In this document: one piece after another, positions 39,656 through 51,963 of the stretch
Numbering within the stretch: the stretch's first letter is position 1
How the letters are laid out: every line of letters begins with the position of its first letter
Source of the DNA: Lacimicrobium alkaliphilum
GTDB taxonomy: Bacteria > Pseudomonadota > Gammaproteobacteria > Enterobacterales > Alteromonadaceae
Length of the DNA: 64,000 bases
Direction: 5' to 3'
Assembly: GCF_001466725.1 (NCBI RefSeq)
Contig: NZ_CP013650.1
Coordinates: 3,782,001-3,846,000, forward strand
Made by a program: the position numbers and the translations under genes
Notes under the pieces: model-generated
Told to the model about the DNA's origin: nothing
Databases searched by the model: none
Seen by the model: the letters and a program-made list of their open reading frames with translations, nothing else

Positions 39656-40015
39656 TCTGACACCGCAACCCATTAACAATTTAAAAACACTTGCATTACA
39701 AAAAGAAAAGCGCTAATTTTACATGAAAGCGCTTACATTTTGATTCTGTGAAGTTGATGGTTTTTACAGGGTAGCGCTGAATTCTGAGTAAAGTCTATTT
39801 AAAACAATATGTTGTGGATACGACTTAAGAGATAAAGCCATTTAAGCAGGGATTAAGGATTTGTCAGCTCAGAGCAAATTCCTGTAGCAAAATTTTTACA
39901 CAAGCTACAAACGGGATAATCAGGCTTGCAAGTATTGATCTTTTTTTTGACATACACTTGTAAGCGCTTACAAAACAAAACCAAAGAGCACGATGTATAC
40001 ACATCGGAGGGACAC
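39656..40015. other. Control region with multiple LacI-type sites upstream of the TonB receptor
   Basis: 360 AT-rich bases without a gene. The AGCGCT core occurs in GAAAAGCGCTAATT (39705-39718), TGAAAGCGCTTACA (39724-39737), a weak GGTAGCGCTGAA near 39770-39781 and the perfect TGTAAGCGCTTACA (39959-39972). A TTGACA (39947-39952) just precedes the last one, without an obvious -10. The first pair and the last site are about 235 bp apart, suitable for DNA looping by a tetrameric or paired LacI-type repressor. Confidence 0.65.
39959..39972. promoter_or_regulatory. LacI-type operator TGTAAGCGCTTACA (TonB receptor/halogenase locus)
   Basis: A perfect 14-bp palindrome (16 bp with flanking T and A) 43 bases before the receptor start. 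The same core occurs at 39724-39737, 51950-51963 and 58838-58851, all upstream of carbohydrate-linked genes. The LacI protein at 48100-49101, encoded in the GH1 operon, is its most likely binder. Confidence 0.78.
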
Positions 40016-42973
40016 ATGAAGCAAAACAGATTTAAAAGAACCCAACTGGCCAGTTGCCTGTCATTGATACTGGGCACCGGCATGGGCTCAGCCTATGCGC
40101 AGGAAAATCAGCCGGAAGCAAACAATGATGTGGTTGAGGTTATCGAGGTCTCAGGGATCCGCAGCAGTTTAATTCGCGCCATGGATGTCAAACGCGAAGG
40201 CAATGGCGTAGTAGATGCCATTTCTGCCGAAGACATCGGCAAGTTCCCGGATACTAACCTTGCGGAATCACTTCAGCGTATTACCGGTGTCTCCATTGAT
40301 CGTCAGAATGGTGAAGGCGCGCGGGTTACCGTTCGCGGCTTTGGTCCGGATTATAATCTGGTGACCCTGAACGGACGCCAGATGCCCACCTCCTCCATCG
40401 AAGCCACAACGGCATCGTCGTCACGCTCCTTTGATTTCGGTAATCTCGCCTCCGAGGGTGTTTCAGCCGTCGAAGTCTATAAAACCGGTCGTGCAGATAT
40501 CTCCACCGGCGGTATTGGTTCAACCATTAACATATTAACGACCCGCCCGCTGAATGCGCCGGGTATGCAGGCCACCTTCGGCGTCAAAGGAGTACATGAC
40601 ACCTCCAGCGAAGACGGCAGTGCACTGACACCGGAGCTTTCCGGTCTGTACAGCAACACCTTTGCTGACGATACGTTCGGTGTTTCTATCAGTGGTAGTT
40701 ACCAGAAACGTGAAAGCGGCAACCAACAAGCTAATACCGGTGGCTGGCATTCATTTTCTGGTGTCGCTGATCAGGATTGGGGTGCGGGTACGGCAGAGTG
40801 GGGTGGTATCCCTGACGGACCGGATTCAGGTCATATAAACCGCCCCAGTGAAGACTCTATTTACTCTGTACCTCAGAGCTTAGGTTATGCCTTTAATGAG
40901 GTTGAGCGCACTCGTACTAACGGTCAACTGGTGCTGCAATACCGCCCTGTTGACGATGTGACCGCAACTCTGGATTATACCTATTCAAAAAATGAGGTAG
41001 CGACCCAATTCCGGGATCTGTCTGGCTGGTTTAACTTCGGTCCTTCCACAGGTGAGTGGACCGATGGTCCCATTGCCTCGCCACTGGTTTACGCCGAACA
41101 AACGCCGGGGCTGTCCGATCTTGCCATGGGTGCGGGCGATTTTGCCTCTGCCAATGAGAACAAGTCTCTTGGCTTCAATCTTGAGTGGCAGGCCACTGAC
41201 AATCTGGAACTCGAGCTCGACGCTCATAGTTCATCTGCCGAATCCGGTCCCGACAGCCCCTGGGGCAGCAACAATGTATTAGGTACCGCAGCTTTTGTCC
41301 GTGCCGAGACCATTGGTCACTTTGATCAGGACTTCCCGGTACTGGAAATCGTCTATCCTGAAGGCTATACCGCACTGGATCCACAGGACATTCGCATTGC
41401 CGGTAGCTCCTTCAGAAACAGCTATATGCGCAGTGAAATCGACCAGTACCAGATCAAAGGCCGTTATACCTTTGATGAAGGCGTGCTCAGCAGCATAGAT
41501 TTCGGAGTGGGCAGCACAGATGTCGATAACCGCTCTGCCTTTTCTAACGTTCAGCGTGATACCTGGGGTGGTGTTGGCGAAGCCGGTGATTTCGACAGTT
41601 CATTCTGGCCAATTTCGTCCGTCGCCGACAGATTTGATATTCCCGGCAGTGGCAGCCCGAATCTGCAGAATGAATTTGCCGTGTTTGATTTTGAGACCGT
41701 CAGAGCCCGTGCAGCCGAGCTTTATCCTGTTGCCGGTGCCGGTGACTGTGGCAACGGTTTCTGCCCGTCTTCTGAGTACACTACCGACAGACGGACTCAG
41801 GAAGAGAATACCTACGCCTATTTCCAGGCCCATACTATGTTTGATATCGGCGATATGCCCGCCAATCTCTCTGCCGGTATCCGCTATGAAAAAACCGATG
41901 TGGCTTCTCAGGCGCTGGTCCCGACCTACACCAATATTGGCTGGGTAGCTGCCAATGAGTTTACACTGATTGGTAATGGTGAACAGGAGTTCACGGATCT
42001 CAAAGGTGATTATGATTACTACCTGCCCAACCTGAACTTTGATGTTGAGCTGACCATGGACATAAAAGCCAGGTTCTCTTACAGCAAAACCATTGGTCGT
42101 CCCAGCTATGGTGATATCCAGGGTGGTCTGACGGTTAATCAGTTGGTTCGTATCGATGGTGGTACGGGCTCCCGCGGTAACCCCAATCTGTTACCCCTTG
42201 AGTCAAATAACTACGACCTGTCACTGGAGTGGTACTACGATGAGGGCAGCTATGCGTCTATTGGTTATTACCGTAAAGACGTAAAGAACTTTATCGGTAC
42301 CTCCATTATTGAAGAACCGGTGTATAACCTGCCTCACCCGGCTCAGGGTTCCCGCTACGCTGAAGCCGTTGATGCGTTGGGCAGTATGGATGCAAATCTG
42401 ATTCGTGATTACATCATCGAGAACTATCCGGATTCCGTGGACGGTGACATGATTTTGGGTATCGCAGGTGATGATGCGCCGGCAAACTTTGATATCACCA
42501 TTCCGGTCAATGACAAAGAAGCGGAACTGGATGGCTGGGAAGTGGCCGTTCAGCACCTGTTTGGTGACAGCGGCTACGGCATCATTGCCAACGCGACTAT
42601 TGTTGACGGTGATATCAGTTACGATGACTTCAGCCTGGAGCAGCAGTTTGCCCTGATAGGCTTGAGTGACTCGGCTAACCTGATTGGTTTCTACGACAAA
42701 GATGGTTTCCAGATTCGTCTGGCCTATAACTGGCGCGACAAATTCCTGTCTGCTACCGGGCAGGCCACAGGTGCACACCCAGCCTACGTGGAGGAATACG
42801 GTCAGTGGGATATGAATGCCAGCTATGAGGTGAATGAAAACCTGACGCTCTTTGTCGAGGCGATTAACATCACCGACGAGTACGGCCGTTCCCATGGTCG
42901 AGCCGAAGAGCAGGTGCTGAATGTAACCCAGACAGGCCCGCGTTATAACATCGGCGCACGCTACAAGTTCTGA
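40016..42973 (+). CDS. TonB-dependent receptor, carbohydrate-locus type
   Basis: A 985-residue receptor. Signal peptide to about residue 28 (GMGSAYAQE); plug with VIEVSGIRSSLIRAMDVKR, VVDAISAEDIGKFPDTNLAESLQRITGVSIDR and ARVTVRGFGPDYNLVTLNGRQMP, the pattern of the large proteobacterial family linked to oligosaccharide uptake; the barrel ends GPRYNIGARYKF. ATG 40016 has GGAGGG seven bases upstream. LacI operators precede it and a strong terminator follows. It is probably the outer-membrane port of the second sugar regulon, importing beta-glucan fragments for the GH3/GH1 enzymes, though no binding data can be read from sequence. Confidence 0.93.
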   Translation: MKQNRFKRTQLASCLSLILGTGMGSAYAQENQPEANNDVVEVIEVSGIRSSLIRAMDVKREGNGVVDAISAEDIGKFPDTNLAESLQRITGVSIDRQNGEGARVTVRGFGPDYNLVTLNGRQMPTSSIEATTASSSRSFDFGNLASEGVSAVEVYKTGRADISTGGIGSTINILTTRPLNAPGMQATFGVKGVHDTSSEDGSALTPELSGLYSNTFADDTFGVSISGSYQKRESGNQQANTGGWHSFSGVADQDWGAGTAEWGGIPDGPDSGHINRPSEDSIYSVPQSLGYAFNEVERTRTNGQLVLQYRPVDDVTATLDYTYSKNEVATQFRDLSGWFNFGPSTGEWTDGPIASPLVYAEQTPGLSDLAMGAGDFASANENKSLGFNLEWQATDNLELELDAHSSSAESGPDSPWGSNNVLGTAAFVRAETIGHFDQDFPVLEIVYPEGYTALDPQDIRIAGSSFRNSYMRSEIDQYQIKGRYTFDEGVLSSIDFGVGSTDVDNRSAFSNVQRDTWGGVGEAGDFDSSFWPISSVADRFDIPGSGSPNLQNEFAVFDFETVRARAAELYPVAGAGDCGNGFCPSSEYTTDRRTQEENTYAYFQAHTMFDIGDMPANLSAGIRYEKTDVASQALVPTYTNIGWVAANEFTLIGNGEQEFTDLKGDYDYYLPNLNFDVELTMDIKARFSYSKTIGRPSYGDIQGGLTVNQLVRIDGGTGSRGNPNLLPLESNNYDLSLEWYYDEGSYASIGYYRKDVKNFIGTSIIEEPVYNLPHPAQGSRYAEAVDALGSMDANLIRDYIIENYPDSVDGDMILGIAGDDAPANFDITIPVNDKEAELDGWEVAVQHLFGDSGYGIIANATIVDGDISYDDFSLEQQFALIGLSDSANLIGFYDKDGFQIRLAYNWRDKFLSATGQATGAHPAYVEEYGQWDMNASYEVNENLTLFVEAINITDEYGRSHGRAEEQVLNVTQTGPRYNIGARYKF

Positions 42974-42991
42974 TAGTCAGCGTCCAATAAT

Positions 42992-43018
42992 AAAGAGCCG
43001 CTTTTGCGGCTCTTTTAT
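42992..43018 (+). terminator. Rho-independent terminator after the TonB receptor
   Basis: A perfect 10-bp stem (AAAGAGCCGC at 42992-43001 and GCGGCTCTTT at 43006-43015) with a TTTT loop, ending in a T-rich tract. It lies 19 bases after the receptor stop and before the halogenase cassette, so the cassette is either expressed by read-through or from its own promoter in 43019-43140. Confidence 0.85.
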
Positions 43019-43143
43019 TCTCGTACAGCAAGATCCATCAGATTAGCGTATTCCGGTCTGAGTAACTTAATCTGATTTGGATTTTCAACAGTAAAGGCTT
43101 CAGGTCGTATTGACCCCGGCGCAAAAGCGGGTAAGTTGTCACT

Positions 43144-44712
43144 ATGCAAAATAGTAAAATTCGCGTTGTAGTGATCGGTGGGGGCACAGCAGGCTGGTTA
43201 ACTGCTAACCTGCTGGCAGCCGATCATGACACCGGGGAAAATGGCAACCTGGACATTACTCTGGTCGAATCTCCCGATATCAAAACCATCGGCGTGGGTG
43301 AAGGCACCTGGCCCTCCATGCGCACAACATTGGAGCGTATCGGCCTGTCTGAAACCGACCTGATTTGTGAGTGTGATGCCAGCTTTAAACAAGGTTCTTT
43401 GTTTAAAAACTGGTATAGCGCCGATGACAGCGATCACTACTACCATCCCTTCAGCCTGCCAGCTGGTTATCAGCAACTGGAGTTCAGCCGCTTCTGGCAG
43501 CAACACCGTAAAAATGTTGATTTTGCCAGTGCTGCAACGCCGCAGGCCAGTATCTGTCGCCGGGGGCTGGCCCCGAAACAGCTGTCTACGCCGGAATATG
43601 CCTTCATACTTAACTATGGGTATCACCTGAATGCTGAGAAATTTGTTGAACTTCTGACCCGTCATGGCAAAAAAAAGCTGGGCATTCGTCATATGCAGGA
43701 CAAGGTAACAGACATTCTCTGGCCTGAGCATTGCGACAAACAACAGAGTCCCATCAAAGCGGTCAGGACAGAGAAACAGGGGTTGCTGGAAGCCGATCTT
43801 TTTATTGATTGCAGTGGCTTTAGCGGCCTGCTGATAGGTAAACATTATCAGATACCCATGCGCAGTGTGCAGGATGTGCTGTTTAATGACCGGGCGCTGG
43901 TGTTACAGGTTCCGTACCAGGATGAGCAGGCACCCATCCAGTCCTGCACGCTTTCAACCGCGCAGCAAAATGGCTGGATCTGGGATATTGGTCTGTCTTC
44001 GCGTCGTGGTGTTGGCTACGTGTATGCCAGCGCCTACGAGCCACAGGCTGATGCTGAAAAGCGCTTACGGGACTATGTTGCCCGGGATAGGGGCGAACAG
44101 GCCGCCAGCAAGGCTGAACCCCGTGAGTTGAGGTTCAATTCAGGGTATCGCCAGCAATTCTGGAAACATAACACCGTAGCAGTTGGCCTCAGTGCCGGTT
44201 TTATCGAACCCCTGGAAGCCTCGGCGCTGGCGTTAATAGAAATGTCAGCACGCTTTATCAGTGATAATTTAAACGCCCTTGAGCAACATATGCCCCTTGT
44301 CAGTGAGCGCTTTAATCATCGTTTTTCTTACCACTGGCAGGGCATCGTTGAGTTTCTTAAGCTGCATTATTGTCTGTCGGCACGTGAAGATAGCGCATAC
44401 TGGCGTGATAACCGTAAAAACCTTAGCGACTCCCTGGAGCAGAAGCTGATGCTGTGGCAGCACCAGTCACCCTCTGTCTATGACAAGCCTCTGGCTGAAG
44501 AGTTGTTCCCTGCAGCGAGCTTTCAATATGTCTACTATGGTATGCAGGGCGCAACAACCTTCGCGCCGCAACGCAGGCAGTCACAACAGGCTGACCAGGC
44601 CGAACAACTGCTGCAGGAGAATCAGCATAAGATCCAGAGAATGACTCAGGCTCTGCCTACCAACAGAGCTTTGATTAATGACATAAAACAACAGGGGCTT
44701 CGCCGCCTGTAA
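43144..44712 (+). CDS. Flavin-dependent tryptophan-halogenase-family protein (first copy)
   Basis: A 522-residue protein of the PrnA/RebH superfamily. The FAD-binding VVIGGGTAGW is at about 9-18, GVGEGTWPSM at about 50, a lysine in the position expected for the catalytic Lys (SFKQGSLFKNW, about 81) and FIEPLEASAL with the expected catalytic Glu at about 354. The flavin-halogenase motif W-x-W-x-I-P is altered to WIWDIG (about 278). No flavin reductase is nearby. Members of this group beside TonB receptors in Alteromonadales, Caulobacter and Xanthomonas mostly have unknown substrates; one or two act on small indoles in vitro. It starts the four-gene cassette with SapC, cupin and the second copy. 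Confidence 0.88.
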   Translation: MQNSKIRVVVIGGGTAGWLTANLLAADHDTGENGNLDITLVESPDIKTIGVGEGTWPSMRTTLERIGLSETDLICECDASFKQGSLFKNWYSADDSDHYYHPFSLPAGYQQLEFSRFWQQHRKNVDFASAATPQASICRRGLAPKQLSTPEYAFILNYGYHLNAEKFVELLTRHGKKKLGIRHMQDKVTDILWPEHCDKQQSPIKAVRTEKQGLLEADLFIDCSGFSGLLIGKHYQIPMRSVQDVLFNDRALVLQVPYQDEQAPIQSCTLSTAQQNGWIWDIGLSSRRGVGYVYASAYEPQADAEKRLRDYVARDRGEQAASKAEPRELRFNSGYRQQFWKHNTVAVGLSAGFIEPLEASALALIEMSARFISDNLNALEQHMPLVSERFNHRFSYHWQGIVEFLKLHYCLSAREDSAYWRDNRKNLSDSLEQKLMLWQHQSPSVYDKPLAEELFPAASFQYVYYGMQGATTFAPQRRQSQQADQAEQLLQENQHKIQRMTQALPTNRALINDIKQQGLRRL

Positions 44713-44728
44713 CTGTTTCGGAGCATCC

Positions 44729-45448
44729 ATGAGCCAACACGTATTACTCAACAGTGAAAATCATCGAAACATCCGTGTTCGAACGCAGCGCAGAGCCGAA
44801 CTGGGTGATAATCAGATGTTTGCCGTCACCTTTGTCGAAGAACTGCGCACCATCCAGGCCCACTACCCTGTATTTTTCCAGAAAGATCCACAAAGTGGAG
44901 AGTTTCAGTGTGTTGCTCTGTTAGGATTTGAGCAGGGTGAGAACCTGTTTCTGACGGAACAGGGCTGGGATGCCCCCCATATACCTGTGCTCATCGAGCG
45001 CCTGCCTTTCTTAATCGGTATGCAGAACAAAGGTGGCGAGCAGGAACGGGTAGTGCATATTGATATGGACAATCCCAGAGTCAATGAAGAAGAAGGCGAA
45101 GCCCTGTTTAATCAGTTCGGCAGTCCCACCGAATACCTTCAGCGTATCTCTGCCCTGTTGGAAGCCACCCACCTGGGTTTGCAGGAGAACAAATCCTTTA
45201 TTGGCATGCTCAATGAGCTGACCTTGATTGAGTCATTCAGCCTGGATGTGGAGCTTAACAATGGCAGTCAGCATCAGCTGCTGGGTTTTTACACCATCAA
45301 CGAGGATAAACTGGCACAATTGTCGGGGGCTCAGTTACAGATGTTGCACGAAAAAGGCTATCTGCAGGCGTTGTATATGATTCTGGCCTCCCATTCTCAT
45401 CTCAAAGACCTGATCGCCCGTAAAAACCAACGGCTCGAACAAGTTTAA
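44729..45448 (+). CDS. SapC-family protein
   Basis: A 239-residue soluble protein of the SapC family (named after a Campylobacter S-layer locus, not the Sap ABC permease). Recognisable stretches are VTFVEELRTIQAHYPVFFQKD, VALLGFEQGENLF, IPVLIERLPFLIGM and MLNELTLIESFSLDVEL. There is no signal peptide or membrane segment, so it is cytoplasmic. It has no known catalytic residues and no established function. It starts 16 bases after the first halogenase and 12 bases precede the cupin gene, the arrangement repeatedly seen with TonB receptors in marine gammaproteobacteria. Confidence 0.88.
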   Translation: MSQHVLLNSENHRNIRVRTQRRAELGDNQMFAVTFVEELRTIQAHYPVFFQKDPQSGEFQCVALLGFEQGENLFLTEQGWDAPHIPVLIERLPFLIGMQNKGGEQERVVHIDMDNPRVNEEEGEALFNQFGSPTEYLQRISALLEATHLGLQENKSFIGMLNELTLIESFSLDVELNNGSQHQLLGFYTINEDKLAQLSGAQLQMLHEKGYLQALYMILASHSHLKDLIARKNQRLEQV

Positions 45449-45460
45449 CGGGCACCAAAG

Positions 45461-46471
45461 ATGCGCCCGTTGAATAGCCTGACCATCACGTCAATGACAG
45501 AACTCGATGAGTTGCTAAGCTCATCAGAGCAGCCTGTGCATATCAGAGGGCTATGTCAGCACTGGCCGGCGGTCACCGCAGGTAAAGCGTCGGATCAGTC
45601 GCTTGTCAGCTATTTAAAACAGTTTGATCAGGGTCAGCCTGTGACAACCTATCGTTATCCGGCGGGTTCGGCGGGACGGATTTTTTATAATGAAACGCTA
45701 ACTGGCTTTAATTTCGAAGCACAGCAACTGCCTTTCTCGGCGTTTGCCGAGCAGTTGCTTAACTATAAAGGTGATGCAGGCGGCGGGTTATACCTGGGTT
45801 CAACCCTATTGGATAAGTGGTTTAGCGGTTTTACCGAGGCCAATTGTCTGGATGTGTCGACCCCCTCGGAGCATATGACGCCGCTTGTAAGCCTGTGGAT
45901 GGGCAACCCCAGTCGTGTCGCGGCACACTTTGATTTTCCTGATAACCTGGCCTGCTGTATTAGTGGTCGCCGTCATGTAACGCTTTTTCCTCCTGAGCAA
46001 ATCGACAATCTTTACATTGGTCCGCTGGACTTTAATCCGGGTGGCCAGCCTATCAGTATGGTTGATCTGGAAGCGCCTGATTATGATCGTTTTCCGAAAT
46101 TCAGGCAGGCACTCGAACAGGCGCTGACAACAGAACTAGAGCCTGGTGATGCGTTATTTATTCCCAGTATGTGGTGGCATGCCATCGATGGCCGGGAACG
46201 GGTCAACACATTGGTCAACTATTGGTGGCGTAACACGCCAGCTTATCTTGGTGCCCCCATGGATGTACTGTTGCATGCCATAATGAGCCTGAAGGAGCTG
46301 CCTAAACGCCAGCGTGAAGGCTGGAAACACCTGTTGGATCACTATGTGTTTAATCACGAGCAACAGGACAGTGAGCATATTCCATCGCAACGACTGGGCC
46401 CCCAGACCCGCATTGATGCCGGCGCGGCACAACGACTCAGAACCATGCTGCTGAACAAACTTGGCCGCTAA
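45461..46471 (+). CDS. Cupin-like (JmjC-fold) iron/2-oxoglutarate oxygenase-type protein
   Basis: A 336-residue protein with a cupin_8/JmjC-like core. The iron-binding H-x-D lies in AAHFDFPDNLACC (about residue 155) and the distal His in SMWWHAIDG (about 240). VTLFPPEQIDNLY and EPGDALFIPSMWWH are typical of FIH-like hydroxylases. It is cytoplasmic, with no signal peptide. FIH-type enzymes hydroxylate amino-acid side chains, so a protein or peptide target is thinkable. It lies between SapC and the second halogenase, with 12- and 31-base gaps, and is probably co-transcribed. Confidence 0.87.
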   Translation: MRPLNSLTITSMTELDELLSSSEQPVHIRGLCQHWPAVTAGKASDQSLVSYLKQFDQGQPVTTYRYPAGSAGRIFYNETLTGFNFEAQQLPFSAFAEQLLNYKGDAGGGLYLGSTLLDKWFSGFTEANCLDVSTPSEHMTPLVSLWMGNPSRVAAHFDFPDNLACCISGRRHVTLFPPEQIDNLYIGPLDFNPGGQPISMVDLEAPDYDRFPKFRQALEQALTTELEPGDALFIPSMWWHAIDGRERVNTLVNYWWRNTPAYLGAPMDVLLHAIMSLKELPKRQREGWKHLLDHYVFNHEQQDSEHIPSQRLGPQTRIDAGAAQRLRTMLLNKLGR

Positions 46472-46502
46472 TTTAATGATACTGCTATAAGAGAGATTAA
46501 CG

Positions 46503-47987
46503 TTGAACAGGGTAAAGAAAGTCATAATCGCAGGGGGCGGCACAGCCGGTTGGATGGCTGCTGCTGCCATCTCGAAACTACTGGGGAAGAACCTGGAAAT
46601 ATGCCTGGTCGAATCTGATCAGATTGCCACCGTCGGCGTAGGTGAAGCGACCATCCCTCCCCTGTTGACCCTGCATAAATTGCTGGAAATCAAGGAGCAG
46701 GATTTTATGGTGGCCACTCAGGCGACCTTTAAACTGGGGATCAGCTTCGAAAACTGGCGCGACGTCAATGAAGACTATATTCACTCTTTTGGCACCACAG
46801 GCCAGGATTGCTGGGCCGCAGGCTTCCAGCATTTCTGGCTGAAAGGAAAACAGCAGGGCATTGCCTCAGATTACGGTGACTACTGTCCGGAGCTGCTGGC
46901 CTCACTGGCAGGGAAATTCGCCGTACAACCAAAGTCAGGTCTGAACTATGCCTACCATTTCGACGCCGGGCTCTACGCACAGTTTTTGCGTAAAATGGCT
47001 GAAAAACACGGCACCCGGCGGGTTGAAGGCAAGATCAGTGAAGTGCAGTGCTGCAACCAGACCGGCATGATCGATAGACTCATTCTTGAAAGCGGTGAAC
47101 AACTCGAAGGCGATCTTTTTATTGATTGCACAGGGTTTCGTGGGCTGCTGATCGAGCAAACCCTGCACACAGGCTATCTGGACTGGACCCATTGGCTGCC
47201 CTGCGACTCAGCGCTGGCAGTGCAGACCGAAAATACCAAACCGCCCATCCCTTATACCCGCTCCATTGCCCGCGAATCAGGCTGGCAATGGCGAATCCCG
47301 CTGCAACATCGTACCGGCAACGGCCTGGTCTACTGCAGCCGCTATATGAGCGATGAGCAGGCGGAACAAACCCTGCTCGATAACCTCGAAGGTGACCCCA
47401 TCACTCAGCCACGTCAGATTCGCTTCAGAACCGGTCAGCGCCGTTTGCACTGGAATAAAAACTGTGTGGCGCTGGGTCTGGCCAGTGGCTTTATTGAGCC
47501 ACTGGAATCCACCAGCATTCATCTGATCCAGCGGGGCATTGTGCGCCTGATGCAGATGTTTCCTCACACGGGCATTGTGCAGAGCGATATTGATGAATTT
47601 AATGGGCAGATGTTCTCAGAAGTGGAGAATATCCGCGACTTCATCATACTCCACTACCACGTAACCAATCGCCGTGACTCGGCTTTCTGGCGTCATTGTG
47701 CCGGCATGGATATTCCCGATTCGCTGGCCCATCGCATTGAGCTGTTCAGGGAAACCGGCAAGGTGTTTAAAGTGCCCAATGAATTGTTCGGTGAGAACTC
47801 CTGGACTCAGGTTATGTTAGGCCAGGGCATCATGCCACAACAGTATCATCCCATCGTGGATCAGATGAGCGATGAGGAACTGTCCCATTTTCTCAACCAG
47901 ATCCGCACTCAGTCGAGACGCATGGTGGATCAGCTTCCCAGTCATCAGGACTTTTTGCGTCATTATTGCCCGGCAGCAATGCCTTAA
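46503..47987 (+). CDS. Flavin-dependent tryptophan-halogenase-family protein (second copy)
   Basis: A 494-residue halogenase-family protein with the complete motif set: KVIIAGGGTAGWMAAAA at about 5-21, VGVGEATIPPL near 43, the putative catalytic Lys in TFKLGISFENW (about 76), W-x-W-x-I-P intact as WQWRIP (about 260) and FIEPLESTSIHLI with the expected Glu at about 331. It starts with TTG, preceded by AAGAGAG about eight bases upstream. Compared with the first copy, its halogenase motif is canonical, so if the cassette halogenates anything this copy is the better candidate. The substrate is unknown. It ends just before a perfect 22-bp inverted repeat. Confidence 0.9.
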   Translation: MNRVKKVIIAGGGTAGWMAAAAISKLLGKNLEICLVESDQIATVGVGEATIPPLLTLHKLLEIKEQDFMVATQATFKLGISFENWRDVNEDYIHSFGTTGQDCWAAGFQHFWLKGKQQGIASDYGDYCPELLASLAGKFAVQPKSGLNYAYHFDAGLYAQFLRKMAEKHGTRRVEGKISEVQCCNQTGMIDRLILESGEQLEGDLFIDCTGFRGLLIEQTLHTGYLDWTHWLPCDSALAVQTENTKPPIPYTRSIARESGWQWRIPLQHRTGNGLVYCSRYMSDEQAEQTLLDNLEGDPITQPRQIRFRTGQRRLHWNKNCVALGLASGFIEPLESTSIHLIQRGIVRLMQMFPHTGIVQSDIDEFNGQMFSEVENIRDFIILHYHVTNRRDSAFWRHCAGMDIPDSLAHRIELFRETGKVFKVPNELFGENSWTQVMLGQGIMPQQYHPIVDQMSDEELSHFLNQIRTQSRRMVDQLPSHQDFLRHYCPAAMP

Positions 47988-48099: not shown

Positions 48100-49101
48100 T
48101 TAAGCTAAACGCCTGACCGAGTCACGCATCACCACAGTAGGCTCAAACAGGTTATGCAGTGGCTTTTTCTTGTCCTGGTAGATATGGTGGCGCACCCAGT
48201 TGGCCGCCATGCTGCCCATTTCTCCGGAAGGAAAATCAATAGTCGTCAGGTGCGGGAAGGTATAGCGCGACATGATGACGTTATCAAAACCCATCACCGA
48301 GATATCACCAGGCACATCCAGGTTATTGTCGCGGGCACAGTTCATTACCCCGCAGGCCATTTCATCATTGGCACACACCACCGCGGTGAAGGATTCTGAC
48401 TGCTGCAGAAGCTGCTGCAAGGCCAGCACACCACCTTCTTCGTGAAAATCACCTTCAATAAACAGTGACTCCGGCATAGCGCAGCCAAACTCCTGCAAGG
48501 CACGACGATGACCGGCAAGACGATCGCGCACGTCGGTTTTCCATGTGGGGCCGGAAACATAGGCTATCTGACGATGGCCCATTTCCAGCATAGTCTTGGT
48601 GGCCAGATAGCCACCCAATTCATTGTTCAGACAAATGCAGTTTTCCATCAGCCCAGGAATACTGCGGTTGATCACCACCACTGGTATGCCACTCTGATTG
48701 AGCTCCAGCAGATACTGATCGGATACTGCATCCACATGCAAAATCAGGGCGTCACATTTACGGCTGATAAGAAATTCGATGGCGTCTTTTTCACTGGCCT
48801 CATCACTGTGGCCGGCAGCCACGATAACGTGCTTGCCGGCTGCGCGCAGCTCACCCTCAACCCCGCTCATCATTTCGCCGAAAAAGGGTCCATAGAGCTC
48901 GGAAACCAATAAGCCGACGCTGTTGGTGCAATTAGAAGCCAACGACTGGGCAATAGAATTGGGCCGGTAGTTGAGCTCCTTCATTGCCTCCAGAACTTTG
49001 GCCCGCTTCGCTTCACTGACCCGGGTATTACCATTCATCACCCGCGACACCGTTGCCAGTGACACGCCCGCCAGTTCTGAGACCTGATATATGGTTGCCA
49101 T
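48100..49101 (-). CDS. LacI-family transcriptional regulator of the second sugar locus
   Basis: A complete 333-residue LacI protein: helix-turn-helix at 1-25 (TIYQVSELAGVSLATVSRVMNG), hinge (YRPNSIAQSLA) and a periplasmic-binding-like sensor domain (VGLLVSELYGPFFGEMMSGVE, VVVINRSIPGL, YVSGPTWKTDVRDRLAGHRRAL, VPGDISVMGFDN). It is the last gene after GH1 and the GPH permease on the same strand, so it is probably autoregulated through the operator at 51950-51963. The same operator elsewhere suggests it also controls the TonB receptor, FHS permease/GH3 and deacetylase genes. The effector is probably a beta-glucoside or glucose derivative (inferred). Confidence 0.94.
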   Translation of the reverse strand: MATIYQVSELAGVSLATVSRVMNGNTRVSEAKRAKVLEAMKELNYRPNSIAQSLASNCTNSVGLLVSELYGPFFGEMMSGVEGELRAAGKHVIVAAGHSDEASEKDAIEFLISRKCDALILHVDAVSDQYLLELNQSGIPVVVINRSIPGLMENCICLNNELGGYLATKTMLEMGHRQIAYVSGPTWKTDVRDRLAGHRRALQEFGCAMPESLFIEGDFHEEGGVLALQQLLQQSESFTAVVCANDEMACGVMNCARDNNLDVPGDISVMGFDNVIMSRYTFPHLTTIDFPSGEMGSMAANWVRHHIYQDKKKPLHNLFEPTVVMRDSVRRLA

Positions 49102-49135: not shown

Positions 49136-50467
49136 CTAAGTACCAATCCTTTCCAGTTCTTGTCGAACCTGTACTACTTTGGCGTCATTAAGCTTATAGA
49201 ATTTCATTACTGCAGCCACCAGCACAAAGGTAACGGCGGGTAACAGAGTAAATGAAAGCAGAATGCCCTGTCGGGTCTGTTCAGATTGTACCTGATTTGG
49301 CGCATATCCATAATAGGCCAGCAACCAGCCAGCCACAGCACCGCCTAAGGCCAGTCCCAGCTTGATAAAAAACACAATAGAGGAATAGGTCATGCCGGTA
49401 ATCCGCAGCCCGGTGCGCCACTGACCATAATCAACAATATCCGCCATCTTCGCCCACAACAGCGGTGTGCCCATCTGCAACACAAAACACCAGGCAATAT
49501 AGATCATAAAGGCCAGCACCAGTTGCTCAGAGTCCACAAAGAACGCGGCAACACAAAGTACAGCAGCAATGAGCTGAATCAGTATGTACGCCTTTACTTT
49601 ACACAGCCTTTTCGCCAGCCACTGAGCCAGGGCACAACCAAGAATATTACCCACCATACCCAATGTGACAAACAAGGTAATCAAATCCTCACGTCCCAGA
49701 TAGTACTTCACATAATAAATCGCCAGGGTATTGCGGATGACCATGCCAAATAGCACCAGAATCGCTGCAATACAGAGTATTCTCCACTGGTCATTTTGCC
49801 ACAAAGAGGCCATATCCTGTCTGAAAGAGGAGTTCTGGGTCGCAGGCGGAAAGATACGTTCTTTAGTGCCGGCAAAACACAGCCAGAAAAATATCACACC
49901 AACAGCGCTCATGGCGGCAATGGTGAGCTGATAGCCAAGGGCCTTGTCTCCCTGGCCGAACCAGTCCACCAGCGGCAGGGTAAAGGCCGTCACCAACAAT
50001 CCACCGAGCATACCGAATACAAAGCGGTAGGACTGCACCGATACCCTCTCACCGGGATCGGCTGTCAGCACACCACCCAGCGCCGAATAGGGAATATTGA
50101 TGGCAGTATAGGCCAGCATCAGCAGGCCATAAGTCACAAAGGCATAAACTACTTTACCGTCGGGGGACAGGTCCGGCGTGGTAAAGGCGAGAACACTGAT
50201 CAGGCCAAAGGGCACGGCCAGCCACAACAAATAGGGCCGGAATTTCCCATGACGGCTGTTGGTTCTGTCGTTGATGGCACCCATCAGGGGGTCTGTGACG
50301 GCGTCGAAGATGCGCACAACAAGAAATAACGTACCGACAATGGCCGGGGAAATCCCAAACACATCGGTATAAAAGAATGACAGGAACAGCATGACCGACT
50401 GAAAGACGATATTGCTGGCCGTATCTCCCAGACCATAAGCGACTTTTTCTTTTACCGACAAGGCCAT
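49136..50467 (-). CDS. GPH-family glycoside:cation symporter (MelB-like)
   Basis: A 443-residue inner-membrane transporter of the glycoside-pentoside-hexuronide family. Typical features are KVAYGLGDTASNIVFQSV at the N-terminus, RIFDAVTDPLMGAINDRTNSRHGKFRPYLLW (Asp residues of the cation/sugar site), AYTAINIPYSALGGVLT and MADIVDYGQWRTGLRITGMTYS, plus about 12 membrane helices. It starts directly after the GH1 stop codon. The likely cargo is a disaccharide or oligosaccharide (cellobiose-like) that GH1 then splits in the cytoplasm. Confidence 0.92.
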   Translation of the reverse strand: MALSVKEKVAYGLGDTASNIVFQSVMLFLSFFYTDVFGISPAIVGTLFLVVRIFDAVTDPLMGAINDRTNSRHGKFRPYLLWLAVPFGLISVLAFTTPDLSPDGKVVYAFVTYGLLMLAYTAINIPYSALGGVLTADPGERVSVQSYRFVFGMLGGLLVTAFTLPLVDWFGQGDKALGYQLTIAAMSAVGVIFFWLCFAGTKERIFPPATQNSSFRQDMASLWQNDQWRILCIAAILVLFGMVIRNTLAIYYVKYYLGREDLITLFVTLGMVGNILGCALAQWLAKRLCKVKAYILIQLIAAVLCVAAFFVDSEQLVLAFMIYIAWCFVLQMGTPLLWAKMADIVDYGQWRTGLRITGMTYSSIVFFIKLGLALGGAVAGWLLAYYGYAPNQVQSEQTRQGILLSFTLLPAVTFVLVAAVMKFYKLNDAKVVQVRQELERIGT

Positions 50468-51844
50468 TTACTTCGCTCCACCTTGTTGTTTAACATTACC
50501 GGACTGTGCTTTTTGCAACAGAAAATCCCGGTATGCATAACCACTGGATTTGATAATACGCTGTTGGCTGTGGTAGTCCACATAGACAATGCCAAAGCGC
50601 TTCAGGTACCCCTCCGCCCACTCAAAATTATCCATCAGACTCCAGGCAAAATAGCCCCTGACATCCACACCTTTTATGGCTGCATCATGTACCGCACGCA
50701 AATGGCTTTGCAGATAAGCCAGACGTTCAGGATCATCCACCTTGCCATCAACCAGTTTATCGACCATGGCGGCACCATTTTCTGTGATGTATACGGCAGG
50801 CAACTGGTAGCGTTGATGATAATCCAGCAGTAAATCTGTCAGGCCCTGAGGAAACACTTCCCAGCCCATATCCGTCAAGGGCTGCTGCTCATGTTCGAGC
50901 TTTTCAAACAGCTCTGTAGATGAGGCCTGATAGCGCTCGCGGGTGTAATAGTTAATGCCAATATAATCCAGTTTGTGGCCAATGATGGCCAGATCACCAG
51001 CCTGTACCGGCGGATGTTCATCTTCCGGCAATTTATCCAGTACATCGGGATAGCGCTGTTCCAGTAACGGCTGTAGATACCAGTGATTAAAGTATTCGTC
51101 AGCCATTTTTGCCGCCTCAATATCCTCCGCGGAATCTGATTCCGGATAACAGGGGCTGAAATTCAGTACGATGCCATTCAGGGCCTCCGGCGCATTGTCG
51201 TCCAGCACCTGCATCGCCAGGCCATGGGCTAACAAAAGATGGTGGGCCGCCTGCTTACCGTAAGCACGGCTCTTGTGCCCGGGAGCATGAATACCCGCCT
51301 CATAGCCCAGATAAGCACTGCAAAAGGGCTCATTCAGAGTGGCATAGGAATACACCCTGTCGCCAAAAGCACGGGACACCAACTGCGCATAATCACGAAA
51401 TTTGAAAGCGGTTTCCCGGTTCAGCCAGCCGCCCTTATCTTCCAGATGCTGGGGCAAATCCCAGTGATACAGGGTAACAAATGCCTTAATGCCGTATTCA
51501 TTGAGGCGATCCAGTAAGGCAATATAAAAGTCCAGTCCCTGCTGATTGACACTCCCATCGGCGTGCATAACCCTCGCCCAGGAGACCGAAAACCGATAGG
51601 CATCCACGCCCAAAGATCTGATCAGTCTGAGATCTTCCTCCCAGTGATGCACATGATCACAGGCCCTTTTACCATCTGAACCGTCACGGATTTTGCCCGG
51701 TGTGGCACAAAAGGTATCCCAGATCGTATCCAGCCTGGACTCTGCGGCACCTTCAATCTGAAAAGAAGCGGTTGCTACACCAAAAATAAATTCCTTGCTC
51801 AGCAAAGGGGACGTGAGGGGTAATGAAATTGCCTTGTTATTCAA
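50468..51844 (-). CDS. GH1 beta-glucosidase
   Basis: A 458-residue family 1 glycoside hydrolase without a signal peptide, therefore cytoplasmic. FIFGVATASFQIEGA is the family N-terminal signature; the acid/base Glu is in TLNEPFCSAYLGY (about residue 169) and the nucleophile Glu in YITENGAAM (about 352); FAWSLMDNFEWAEGY is near the C-terminus. It would hydrolyse cellobiose-like beta-glucosides to glucose. It starts with TTG, supported by AGGA seven bases upstream. It is the first gene of the GH1-permease-LacI unit and divergent from the FHS permease, with a shared LacI-type operator in between. Confidence 0.95.
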   Translation of the reverse strand: MNNKAISLPLTSPLLSKEFIFGVATASFQIEGAAESRLDTIWDTFCATPGKIRDGSDGKRACDHVHHWEEDLRLIRSLGVDAYRFSVSWARVMHADGSVNQQGLDFYIALLDRLNEYGIKAFVTLYHWDLPQHLEDKGGWLNRETAFKFRDYAQLVSRAFGDRVYSYATLNEPFCSAYLGYEAGIHAPGHKSRAYGKQAAHHLLLAHGLAMQVLDDNAPEALNGIVLNFSPCYPESDSAEDIEAAKMADEYFNHWYLQPLLEQRYPDVLDKLPEDEHPPVQAGDLAIIGHKLDYIGINYYTRERYQASSTELFEKLEHEQQPLTDMGWEVFPQGLTDLLLDYHQRYQLPAVYITENGAAMVDKLVDGKVDDPERLAYLQSHLRAVHDAAIKGVDVRGYFAWSLMDNFEWAEGYLKRFGIVYVDYHSQQRIIKSSGYAYRDFLLQKAQSGNVKQQGGAK

Positions 51845-51949: not shown

Positions 51950-51963
51950 TGTAAGCGCTTTCA
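51950..51963. promoter_or_regulatory. LacI-type operator TGTAAGCGCTTTCA in divergent promoter region
   Basis: This 14-bp near-palindrome with the AGCGCT core lies 106 bases from the GH1 start and 92 bases from the FHS permease start, so one site can control both operons. It differs from the perfect operator at 39959-39972 in one half (TTTCA for TTACA), and the same TTTC variant recurs at 58838-58851. Confidence 0.75.

What the first reader, a model, noticed from the sequence alone, without database searches (positions are those of the whole stretch)
39705..47987. LacI-controlled TonB receptor with a halogenase-SapC-cupin-halogenase cassette
Seen: a carbohydrate-type TonB receptor with LacI operators is followed by four tightly spaced genes encoding two flavin-halogenase-family proteins, a SapC-family protein and a JmjC-like cupin. 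None has a signal peptide, and no natural-product synthase, precursor peptide or flavin reductase is nearby. Known: similar sets recur near TonB receptors in several proteobacteria, and no pathway has been established for them to my knowledge. Inference: this is a cytoplasmic modification module working with oligosaccharide uptake. One hypothesis is that the halogenase-fold flavoenzymes and the FIH-like cupin modify an aromatic side chain of a peptide or protein (for example of the receptor or TonB machinery before export) rather than a free metabolite.
Basis: partly seen in the sequence, partly recalled or inferred. Interest (0 to 1): 0.75.

Follow-up and report, generated by a model that had tools for sequence, protein, structure and literature searches.

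The report
Sugar receptor with dedicated halogenase cassette
Many water and soil bacteria place, directly behind the gene for an outer-membrane sugar receptor, a set of enzymes that look built to halogenate and hydroxylate something; the pairing is far too consistent to be chance, but what they modify is still unknown.

Summary
A TIGR01782 TonB receptor (TBDR) with two LacI operators is followed by Hal1, SapC, an FIH-like cupin and Hal2; LacI, GPH-symporter and GH1 beta-glucosidase genes with a third operator are convergent. The finding is bigger than one locus. All 9 halogenase-family proteins over cut-off in this genome lie at such TBDRs, and 38 of 40 sampled halogenase stretches from the same family contain one (about 6% expected for a random position). 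The order TBDR-Hal-SapC-cupin-Hal recurs in 61 of 80 loci found through SapC (gamma- and betaproteobacteria); alphaproteobacteria show it without Hal1. Catalytic residues are invariant in 62 cassettes. Neighbouring genes point to different sugars, so the shared element is the receptor, not the sugar. DUF6445, a frequent extra gene, is predicted to be a second 2OG-oxygenase. A hairpin terminator separates receptor from enzymes in most gaps examined. Best reading: a receptor-dedicated cytoplasmic oxidative modification set, most likely acting on the nascent receptor; an imported aromatic ligand is the main rival. No aromatic receptor residue convincingly tracks the halogenases, so the target is unproven. 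No paper seen in ten open-licence searches describes the coupling.

The parts
39724..39737 (+). LacI-type operator 1 (TGAAAGCGCTTACA)
   Evidence: 1 mismatch to TGTAAGCGCTTACA
39959..39972 (+). LacI-type operator 2 (TGTAAGCGCTTACA), just downstream of a TTGACA and 43 nt before the TBDR start
   Evidence: perfect palindrome
40016..42973 (+). TonB-dependent receptor, carbohydrate type (TIGR01782), with signal peptide by eye; ORF opens at 39926
42991..43016 (+). terminator-like hairpin (AGAGCCGC-TTTT-GCGGCTCT, T run) between receptor and enzyme genes
   Evidence: not listed by the generic scanner
43144..44712 (+). Hal1: flavin-dependent halogenase family protein (2PYX-like)
44729..45448 (+). SapC family protein (PF07277), no signal peptide by eye, confident model
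45461..46471 (+). FIH-like JmjC/Cupin_8 2OG-Fe(II) oxygenase, HxD...H present
46503..47987 (+). Hal2: flavin-dependent halogenase family protein (Xcc4156/BrvH-like); TTG start in the ORF list, exact start not settled
48100..49101 (-). LacI-family regulator (nearest NCBIfam GalR/GalS/RbsR, all below cut-off), convergent
49136..50467 (-). GPH-family sugar:cation symporter (TIGR00792 over cut-off)
50468..51844 (-). GH1 beta-glucosidase (TIGR03356 over cut-off)
51950..51963 (+). LacI-type operator 3, upstream of the GH1-GPH-LacI genes

Best explanation
The locus is a carbohydrate-utilisation (CUT) locus for beta-glucosides whose receptor carries a dedicated cytoplasmic oxidative-modification set. 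Shown by sequence: receptor, LacI-type operators before both operons, symporter and beta-glucosidase; two halogenase-family proteins and an FIH-like oxygenase with intact catalytic residues; SapC; tight and widespread linkage of such sets to carbohydrate TBDRs whatever the sugar. Inferred: the enzymes act on their own receptor as a preprotein before Sec export. SapC would hold or present the unfolded segment, Hal1 and Hal2 would halogenate (or hydroxylate) aromatic side chains, and the FIH-like cupin, with DUF6445 where present, would hydroxylate others, tuning ligand binding or receptor life. The terminator between receptor and enzymes would keep enzymes substoichiometric to a highly expressed receptor.
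For: All 9 PF04820 proteins over cut-off in the genome lie at TIGR01782 TBDRs, 5 of the 13 TBDRs over cut-off. 38 of 40 sampled halogenase stretches from the family contain a TBDR, against 5.8% for a random position in this genome and about 6.3% in six other family genomes. Halogenase genes recur receptor by receptor, up to 22 PF04820 matches in one genome, which is expected if the substrate differs with each receptor, not for one free metabolite. Similar sets lie beside GH1/GH3/GH16, GH10/43/115, GH13/97, GlcNAc and fucosidase genes. Distances among 63 receptors and among their halogenases correlate (Mantel r 0.56, largest of 2000 shuffles 0.12). The cupin's nearest solved relatives are FIH, JMJD5, JMJD7 and C2orf60, mostly protein hydroxylases (recalled). 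Precedent: Caulobacter CciO, a cytoplasmic 2OG oxygenase, is needed specifically by its neighbouring TBDR CciT (PMC11870441, passages). Terminator-like hairpin in 102 of 145 receptor-cassette gaps against 24 of 203 intragenic 150-nt controls.
Against: No aromatic residue of the TBDR convincingly tracks halogenase presence: W547 goes with it in 2.8 and against it in 0.5 of 15 independent pairs, and a looser version (Trp within 8 residues) goes 2.9 with and 3.9 against; Y351 goes 5.7 to 1.0 but was picked from thousands of columns. For Hal1 presence the best column is 3.0 to 0.6 of 8 pairs. At larger distances (TBDR identity under 40%) the TBDR-halogenase correlation falls to 0.17, and linkage alone makes near relatives correlate. 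Eight of 13 TBDRs over cut-off in this genome have no halogenase, so the receptor class can work without one. A receptor bound for export gives enzymes little time. For the CciO/PiuC pair the printed idea is that the enzyme transforms the transported substrate. DUF6445's best fold matches include small-molecule oxygenases such as HygX as well as PHD2. No PF01613 flavin reductase in the genome. Two genomes with a strong halogenase match but no TIGR01782 receptor over cut-off (G034, G091) were not examined further.
Confidence: 0.4

Rival explanations
1. The enzymes act on a small aromatic ligand or aglycone that comes in through the receptor (aryl glycoside, phenolic ester, or a siderophore-like compound), modifying it in the cytoplasm, as proposed for PiuC and the substrate of PiuA.
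For: Two printed accounts of the TBDR-2OG-oxygenase pair mention substrate transformation. Xcc4156-, BrvH- and related metagenomic halogenases act on free indole or phenols. This locus has a GH1 beta-glucosidase, a family that also cleaves aryl-beta-glucosides (recalled).
Against: Similar sets sit with starch, GlcNAc, xylan and fucose genes, where no common aromatic ligand is expected. No aromatic-catabolism family among the 25 commonest Pfam families of 115 of 146 neighbour proteins (only those 25 of 114 families were shown).
Confidence: 0.3
2. The cassette modifies another protein or peptide common to these loci (TonB/ExbD partner, lipoprotein, glycosidase or a distant precursor peptide) rather than the receptor itself.
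For: Would explain why no receptor residue tracks the enzymes while the set still follows the receptor genes. Peptide halogenation suggested for Xcc4156.
Against: No convincing precursor in the gaps: 16, 12 and 31 nt inside the cassette and one 23-aa TTG frame on the + strand in the 170-nt gap, overlapping the hairpin. Among the neighbour families shown, none recurs as the TBDR does.
Confidence: 0.13
3. Classic secondary metabolism: halogenation of free tryptophan or indole for a signalling or defensive product, with TBDR linkage incidental.
For: Fold and catalytic residues of flavin-dependent halogenases; annotation as tryptophan halogenase.
Against: 38 of 40 sampled stretches hold a TBDR; up to 22 PF04820 matches in one genome; transporter and glycosidase families head the neighbour tally; [quoted passage not shown]
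Confidence: 0.07
4. The halogenase-fold proteins no longer halogenate but work as flavin-dependent redox or oxygen sensors, or hydroxylases, that regulate or modify the receptor.
For: Hal1 has WxWxIG rather than WxWxIP; no PF01613 flavin reductase in the genome; QhpG and LodB, weak matches below cut-off, are relatives that modify proteins without halogenating (recalled).
Against: Catalytic Lys and Glu are invariant in both halogenases in 62 cassettes and Hal2 keeps WxWxIP; the nearest solved relative of Hal2, Xcc4156, is active on indole derivatives.
Confidence: 0.1

Closest known systems
Carbohydrate utilisation loci with TonB-dependent transporter (CUT loci; Blanvillain 2007, PMC1790865, passages)
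   Same: TIGR01782-type receptor, LacI regulator, inner-membrane sugar transporter, glycosidase, LacI-type operators before both operons
   Different: The main text of that paper has 0 occurrences of 'halogen' and 'SapC'; the enzyme cassette is an extra layer
Xcc4156, BrvH and other indole-type flavin-dependent halogenases (PMC7336383, PMC5945002, passages)
   Same: Hal2: 707 bits to 6y1w (Xcc4156 by recall) and 479 to 6frl (BrvH by recall); catalytic residues kept
   Different: Studied as isolated enzymes; native substrates unknown; 'TonB' and 'SapC' 0 times in both main texts
2PYX, solved halogenase (Shewanella frigidimarina by recall)
   Same: Very probably the Hal1 of this very cassette: Hal1 of the S. 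frigidimarina locus L094 is identical over a 52-residue stretch and 80 of 81 over another
   Different: Function unknown (recalled)
CciT-CciO / PiuA-PiuC / Fiu-YbiX (TBDR plus cytoplasmic 2OG-Fe oxygenase; PMC11870441, PMC12004943, passages)
   Same: Cytoplasmic oxygenase encoded beside, and for CciT strictly needed by, one particular TBDR
   Different: Fur-regulated iron receptors; a single oxygenase of another family; no halogenase or SapC in the passages seen
FIH and JMJD5 (JmjC hydroxylases)
   Same: Cupin: best PDB match FIH over residues 147-262, HxD...H and FPPEQ region
   Different: FIH Lys214 (number recalled) aligns with an Arg that is invariant in 62 cassettes; substrate unknown

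Membership tests
Flavin-dependent halogenase (PF04820) | FAD motif GxGxxG (here GGGTAGW/GGGSAGW) | tested here: met
   the glycines are 100% in Hal1 and Hal2 of 62 cassettes
Flavin-dependent halogenase (PF04820) | catalytic Lys and Glu (K79/E346 of PrnA, recalled) | tested here: met
   Lys 100% and Glu 100% in both; alignments
Flavin-dependent halogenase (PF04820) | WxWxIP motif (recalled) | tested here: inconclusive
   Hal2 W-x-W-x-I-P 100%; Hal1 both W and I 100% but Gly (93%) in place of Pro
Flavin-dependent halogenase (PF04820) | halogenating activity | not testable with these tools
   needs assay
Flavin-dependent halogenase (PF04820) | partner flavin reductase (PF01613 type) in the genome | tested here: not met
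   0 matches in the whole genome; Fre-type reductases not searched
Secondary-metabolite tryptophan halogenase (PrnA/RebH type) | biosynthetic cluster context | tested here: not met
   TBDR and sugar genes instead
RiPP peptide halogenase (MibH type) | precursor peptide gene next to the enzyme | tested here: not met
   inner gaps 16, 12, 31 nt; in the 170-nt gap one + strand frame of 20 aa or more, 23 aa, TTG start, overlapping the hairpin; distant precursors not excluded
CUT locus / TBDR-based sugar locus | TIGR01782 receptor, LacI regulator, sugar transporter, glycosidase in one locus | tested here: met
CUT locus / TBDR-based sugar locus | common operators | tested here: met
   sites at 39724, 39959, 51950; binding not shown
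FIH-like 2OG-Fe(II) oxygenase (Cupin_8/JmjC) | HxD...H metal triad | tested here: met
   H, D, H 100% in 62 cassettes
TBDR plus dedicated 2OG oxygenase pair (CciT-CciO) | oxygenase required for function of the adjacent receptor | not testable with these tools
   needs deletion and growth assay
TBDR plus dedicated 2OG oxygenase pair (CciT-CciO) | homologous oxygenase and Fur control | not tested
   the cupin is Cupin_8; the DUF6445 model matches 9qn0, titled pseudomonal iron uptake factor C, at fold level only; Fur boxes not searched
Known fold for SapC | structural relative in PDB | tested here: inconclusive
   model pLDDT 94; searches, see Tried and rejected

The most novel reading that the evidence does not exclude
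Bacterial carbohydrate TonB-dependent receptors are post-translationally halogenated and hydroxylated in the cytoplasm before export by receptor-specific enzyme sets (Hal, SapC, FIH-like cupin, DUF6445), a protein-modification system of outer-membrane transporters that also gives the orphan BrvH/Xcc-type halogenases their natural substrate.
Probability: 0.3. Interest if true: 0.93.

Novelty: new variant of a known kind. Interest (0 to 1): 0.74.

Why it matters
The natural substrates of the BrvH/Xcc4156-type halogenases are given as unknown in the two papers read in passages. The near-universal tie of this class to sugar TonB receptors in the sampled family narrows the search to one receptor and its cargo, and makes it testable by mass spectrometry of a single outer-membrane protein. 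If the receptor is the target, it would be a new kind of protein modification in sugar-foraging bacteria; if the cargo is, a new oxidative step in polysaccharide uptake. SapC and DUF6445 gain a context, and DUF6445 (Pfam: unknown function) a predicted chemistry.

Tried and rejected
Receptor Trp/Tyr/Phe/His tracking halogenase presence over a tree of 138 receptors (99 with, 39 without a cassette gene): none convincing. Y351 reached about 5.7 to 1.0 pairs (median p 0.125) and L86 (absent with halogenase) 0 to 5.4 (median p 0.06), each picked from thousands of columns (the printout was cut, so the results for several of the twelve extra columns tried there were not seen). Hal1 presence against receptor residues within the cassette type: none (68 receptors, 8 changes). 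W547 in the VQRxxWGG loop looked invariant in cassette receptors but failed the independent-pair test.
Full report
WHAT IS THERE. The window locus holds a TonB-dependent receptor (TBDR, TIGR01782 667 bits), then on the same strand Hal1, SapC, a Cupin_8 oxygenase and Hal2, then convergent LacI, GPH symporter and GH1 beta-glucosidase genes. Copies of the palindrome TGTAAGCGCTTACA lie at 39724 and 39959 before the TBDR and at 51950 before the GH1 gene; the window has 8 sites with up to 3 mismatches against 2.3 expected. The second lies just behind a TTGACA; the TBDR start is best put at 40016. Inner gaps of the enzyme genes are 16, 12 and 31 nt. A terminator-like hairpin (42991-43016) lies between TBDR and Hal1; the generic scanner did not list it.

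THE REST OF THE GENOME. The window lies in a 4.38 Mb single-contig genome; the nearest named SapC in the scan is from Lacimicrobium alkaliphilum (97% identical). PF04820 gives 9 proteins over cut-off, all at TIGR01782 receptors, in four loci; a tenth match is below cut-off. One locus is a run of ten same-strand genes, TBDR-Hal-Hal(weak)-Hal-DUF6445-TBDR-SapC-cupin-Hal-DUF6445, beside GH9, GH10, GH43 and GH115 genes. Another is LacI, TBDR-Hal, an oppositely oriented Hal, SapC, then BadF-type kinase, SIS-domain, amidohydrolase and MFS genes, a GlcNAc pathway by content. A third is TBDR-Hal near a GH13 gene. Three of four SapC, two of three Cupin_8 and two of three DUF6445 genes are in these loci; the others lie elsewhere without a halogenase beside them. 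Five of the 13 receptors over cut-off have a halogenase, eight do not. A random position has a 5.8% chance of lying within 8 kb of one of the 13.

SURVEYS. (a) A SapC profile scan of GTDB contigs found 248 relatives and kept the best 80: Shewanella, Paraglaciecola, Colwellia, Microbulbifer, Ferrimonas, Massilia, Lysobacterales, Kordiimonas and others. 61 of the 80 have TBDR, Hal, SapC, cupin and Hal in that order on one strand, six Massilia loci (betaproteobacteria) among them; 13 have TBDR-SapC-cupin-Hal without Hal1, including the alphaproteobacterium Kordiimonas (L150); 2 have TBDR-SapC-cupin; the other 4 are two that begin with Hal1 near an end of the stretch, one with broken frames and one where SapC was not resolved. 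78 of 80 hold a TBDR. This set is biased by its bait. (b) Halogenase-first survey: 36 of 39 genomes of the family have a PF04820 match over cut-off, 1 to 22 matches each, weak ones included; in G133 and G142 only weak ones. 38 contain a TBDR by my profile. The lowest score among those of full length is 367 bits; in L240 only a 199-aa end is on the contig. The exceptions are L237 and L249; for L249 a receptor lies about 9.5 kb off. With receptors of at least 600 aa, 63 of 70 halogenase genes have one within 5 kb, 56 on the same strand and 7 on the other, and 7 have none. In six of these genomes 74 receptors over cut-off would put about 6.3% of random positions within 8 kb of one. (c) Of 118 distinct receptors in the own and family sets, the next same-strand gene is a halogenase in 53, SapC in 14, another receptor in 3, other or none in 48; this set was partly chosen by halogenases. 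(d) Alphaproteobacterial plasmids: 89 records match Hal2; ten of the 21 top-ranked hits were opened, annotated ones by preference, and all 10 have an annotated TonB-dependent receptor beside the halogenase genes; two are near-identical Asticcacaulis loci. Nine of the ten also have glycoside hydrolase genes in the stretch (GH3, GH13, GH16, GH43, GH68, GH95, GH97, fucosidase), one does not (L326). Sphingobium L325 and Sphingomonas L326 have TBDR-SapC-cupin-Hal, and L333 has TBDR-DUF6445-Hal. Streptomyces and Burkholderia hits were not opened. (e) Against: in 114 gammaproteobacteria, one per family, SapC occurs in 16, and 14 of these lack a halogenase match above 300 bits.

THE PROTEINS. Hal2 is closest in the PDB to 6y1w (Xcc4156; 707 bits), Hal1 to 2PYX (565 bits). 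2PYX is very probably the Hal1 of this cassette in Shewanella frigidimarina: L094 Hal1 is identical over 52 residues and 80 of 81 in a second stretch. In 62 cassettes (61 plus the window) the FAD-motif glycines, the Lys and the Glu are invariant in both; Hal2 keeps WxWxIP, Hal1 mostly has WxWxIG. The cupin keeps HxD...H in all 62; its best PDB matches are FIH, JMJD5, JMJD7 and C2orf60. SapC gives a confident model (pLDDT 94, pTM 0.86). DUF6445 has invariant HxD, H and R positions in five sequences and its model (pLDDT 82, five sequences) matches 2OG oxygenases, 64 chains at E 0.001 or better, among them HygX, PHD2 and PiuC, at moderate TM-scores of about 0.4 to 0.5.

WHAT COULD BE THE TARGET. 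The sugar genes change from locus to locus while the enzymes stay; the receptor is the constant partner. That favours the receptor, or something bound to it, over one free metabolite. The direct test did not help: on a tree of 138 receptors halogenase status changes at least 16 times (100 shuffles: 29 or more), but no aromatic column convincingly follows it, nor does any follow Hal1 within the cassette type. Trp content is slightly higher with halogenase (1.31 against 1.05 per 100 residues, not corrected for kinship). Distances of 63 adjacent receptor-halogenase pairs correlate (Mantel r 0.56), as linked genes would anyway, and little at long range (0.17). The hairpin recurs in 102 of 145 receptor-cassette gaps against 24 of 203 intragenic controls; the gaps searched were up to 200 nt and the controls 150 nt, and coding sequence is an imperfect control.

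LITERATURE. All seven papers were seen in passages only. The Xcc4156 paper suggests peptides as possible substrates because of the open site (PMC7336383). BrvH's natural substrate is unknown and a second halogenase lies upstream of it (PMC5945002). Three of four metagenomic halogenases act on indole and not on tryptophan (PMC8269204). CciO of Caulobacter is required specifically by its neighbour TBDR CciT; both Caulobacter papers mention the idea that PiuC-type enzymes transform the transported substrate, and the first also lists other options (PMC11870441, PMC12004943). The CUT-locus paper has no 'halogen' or 'SapC' in its main text (PMC1790865). One deep-sea oil paper reports halogenase transcripts in Colwellia and phages and proposes other roles (PMC11337851). 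Ten searches of the open-licence library listed no paper that by title or abstract describes the TBDR-halogenase-SapC coupling; some searches listed only part of their hits. Only 4 papers hold both 'tryptophan halogenase' and 'TonB' (one read in passages, three seen as listing). Subscription journals are not covered.

VERDICT. I file the locus as a CUT locus with a new kind of accessory module, and the halogenases as members of the indole-type flavin-dependent halogenase group by sequence, not by demonstrated activity.

Noticed in passing
G000:C1:3941166-3957061 (L047, L048): Ten same-strand genes in a row: TBDR-Hal-weak Hal-Hal-DUF6445-TBDR-SapC-cupin-Hal-DUF6445, next to GH10, GH43, GH115 and GH9 genes (xylan degradation by content).
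   Followed up: partly
L048:830-2248 (-): A divergent halogenase-fold protein (PF04820 126 bits, 472 aa) between two typical halogenases; possibly non-catalytic (motifs not checked).
   Followed up: no
L050:8468-9247 (-): A SapC paralogue next to mraZ and the rsmH/mraW gene, without halogenase or TBDR in the 18-kb stretch, so SapC also has a role outside the receptor loci.
   Followed up: partly
L335:8553-9182 (-) and L051:8673-9707 (+): A DUF6445 gene and an FIH-like cupin gene of the same genome that stand without a halogenase beside them.
   Followed up: partly
whole genome G000: No PF01613 flavin reductase although there are 9 halogenase-family genes; 13 of 14 control genomes have one.
   Followed up: no
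G000:C1:3778225-3780974, just upstream of the window: A TIGR01782 receptor match lies in two different reading frames, possibly an interrupted gene.
   Followed up: no
PF20043 (DUF6445) family, e.g. L047:13640-14308: Pfam lists it as unknown function; the HxD/H/R pattern and the model mark it as a likely 2OG-Fe(II) oxygenase.
   Followed up: yes
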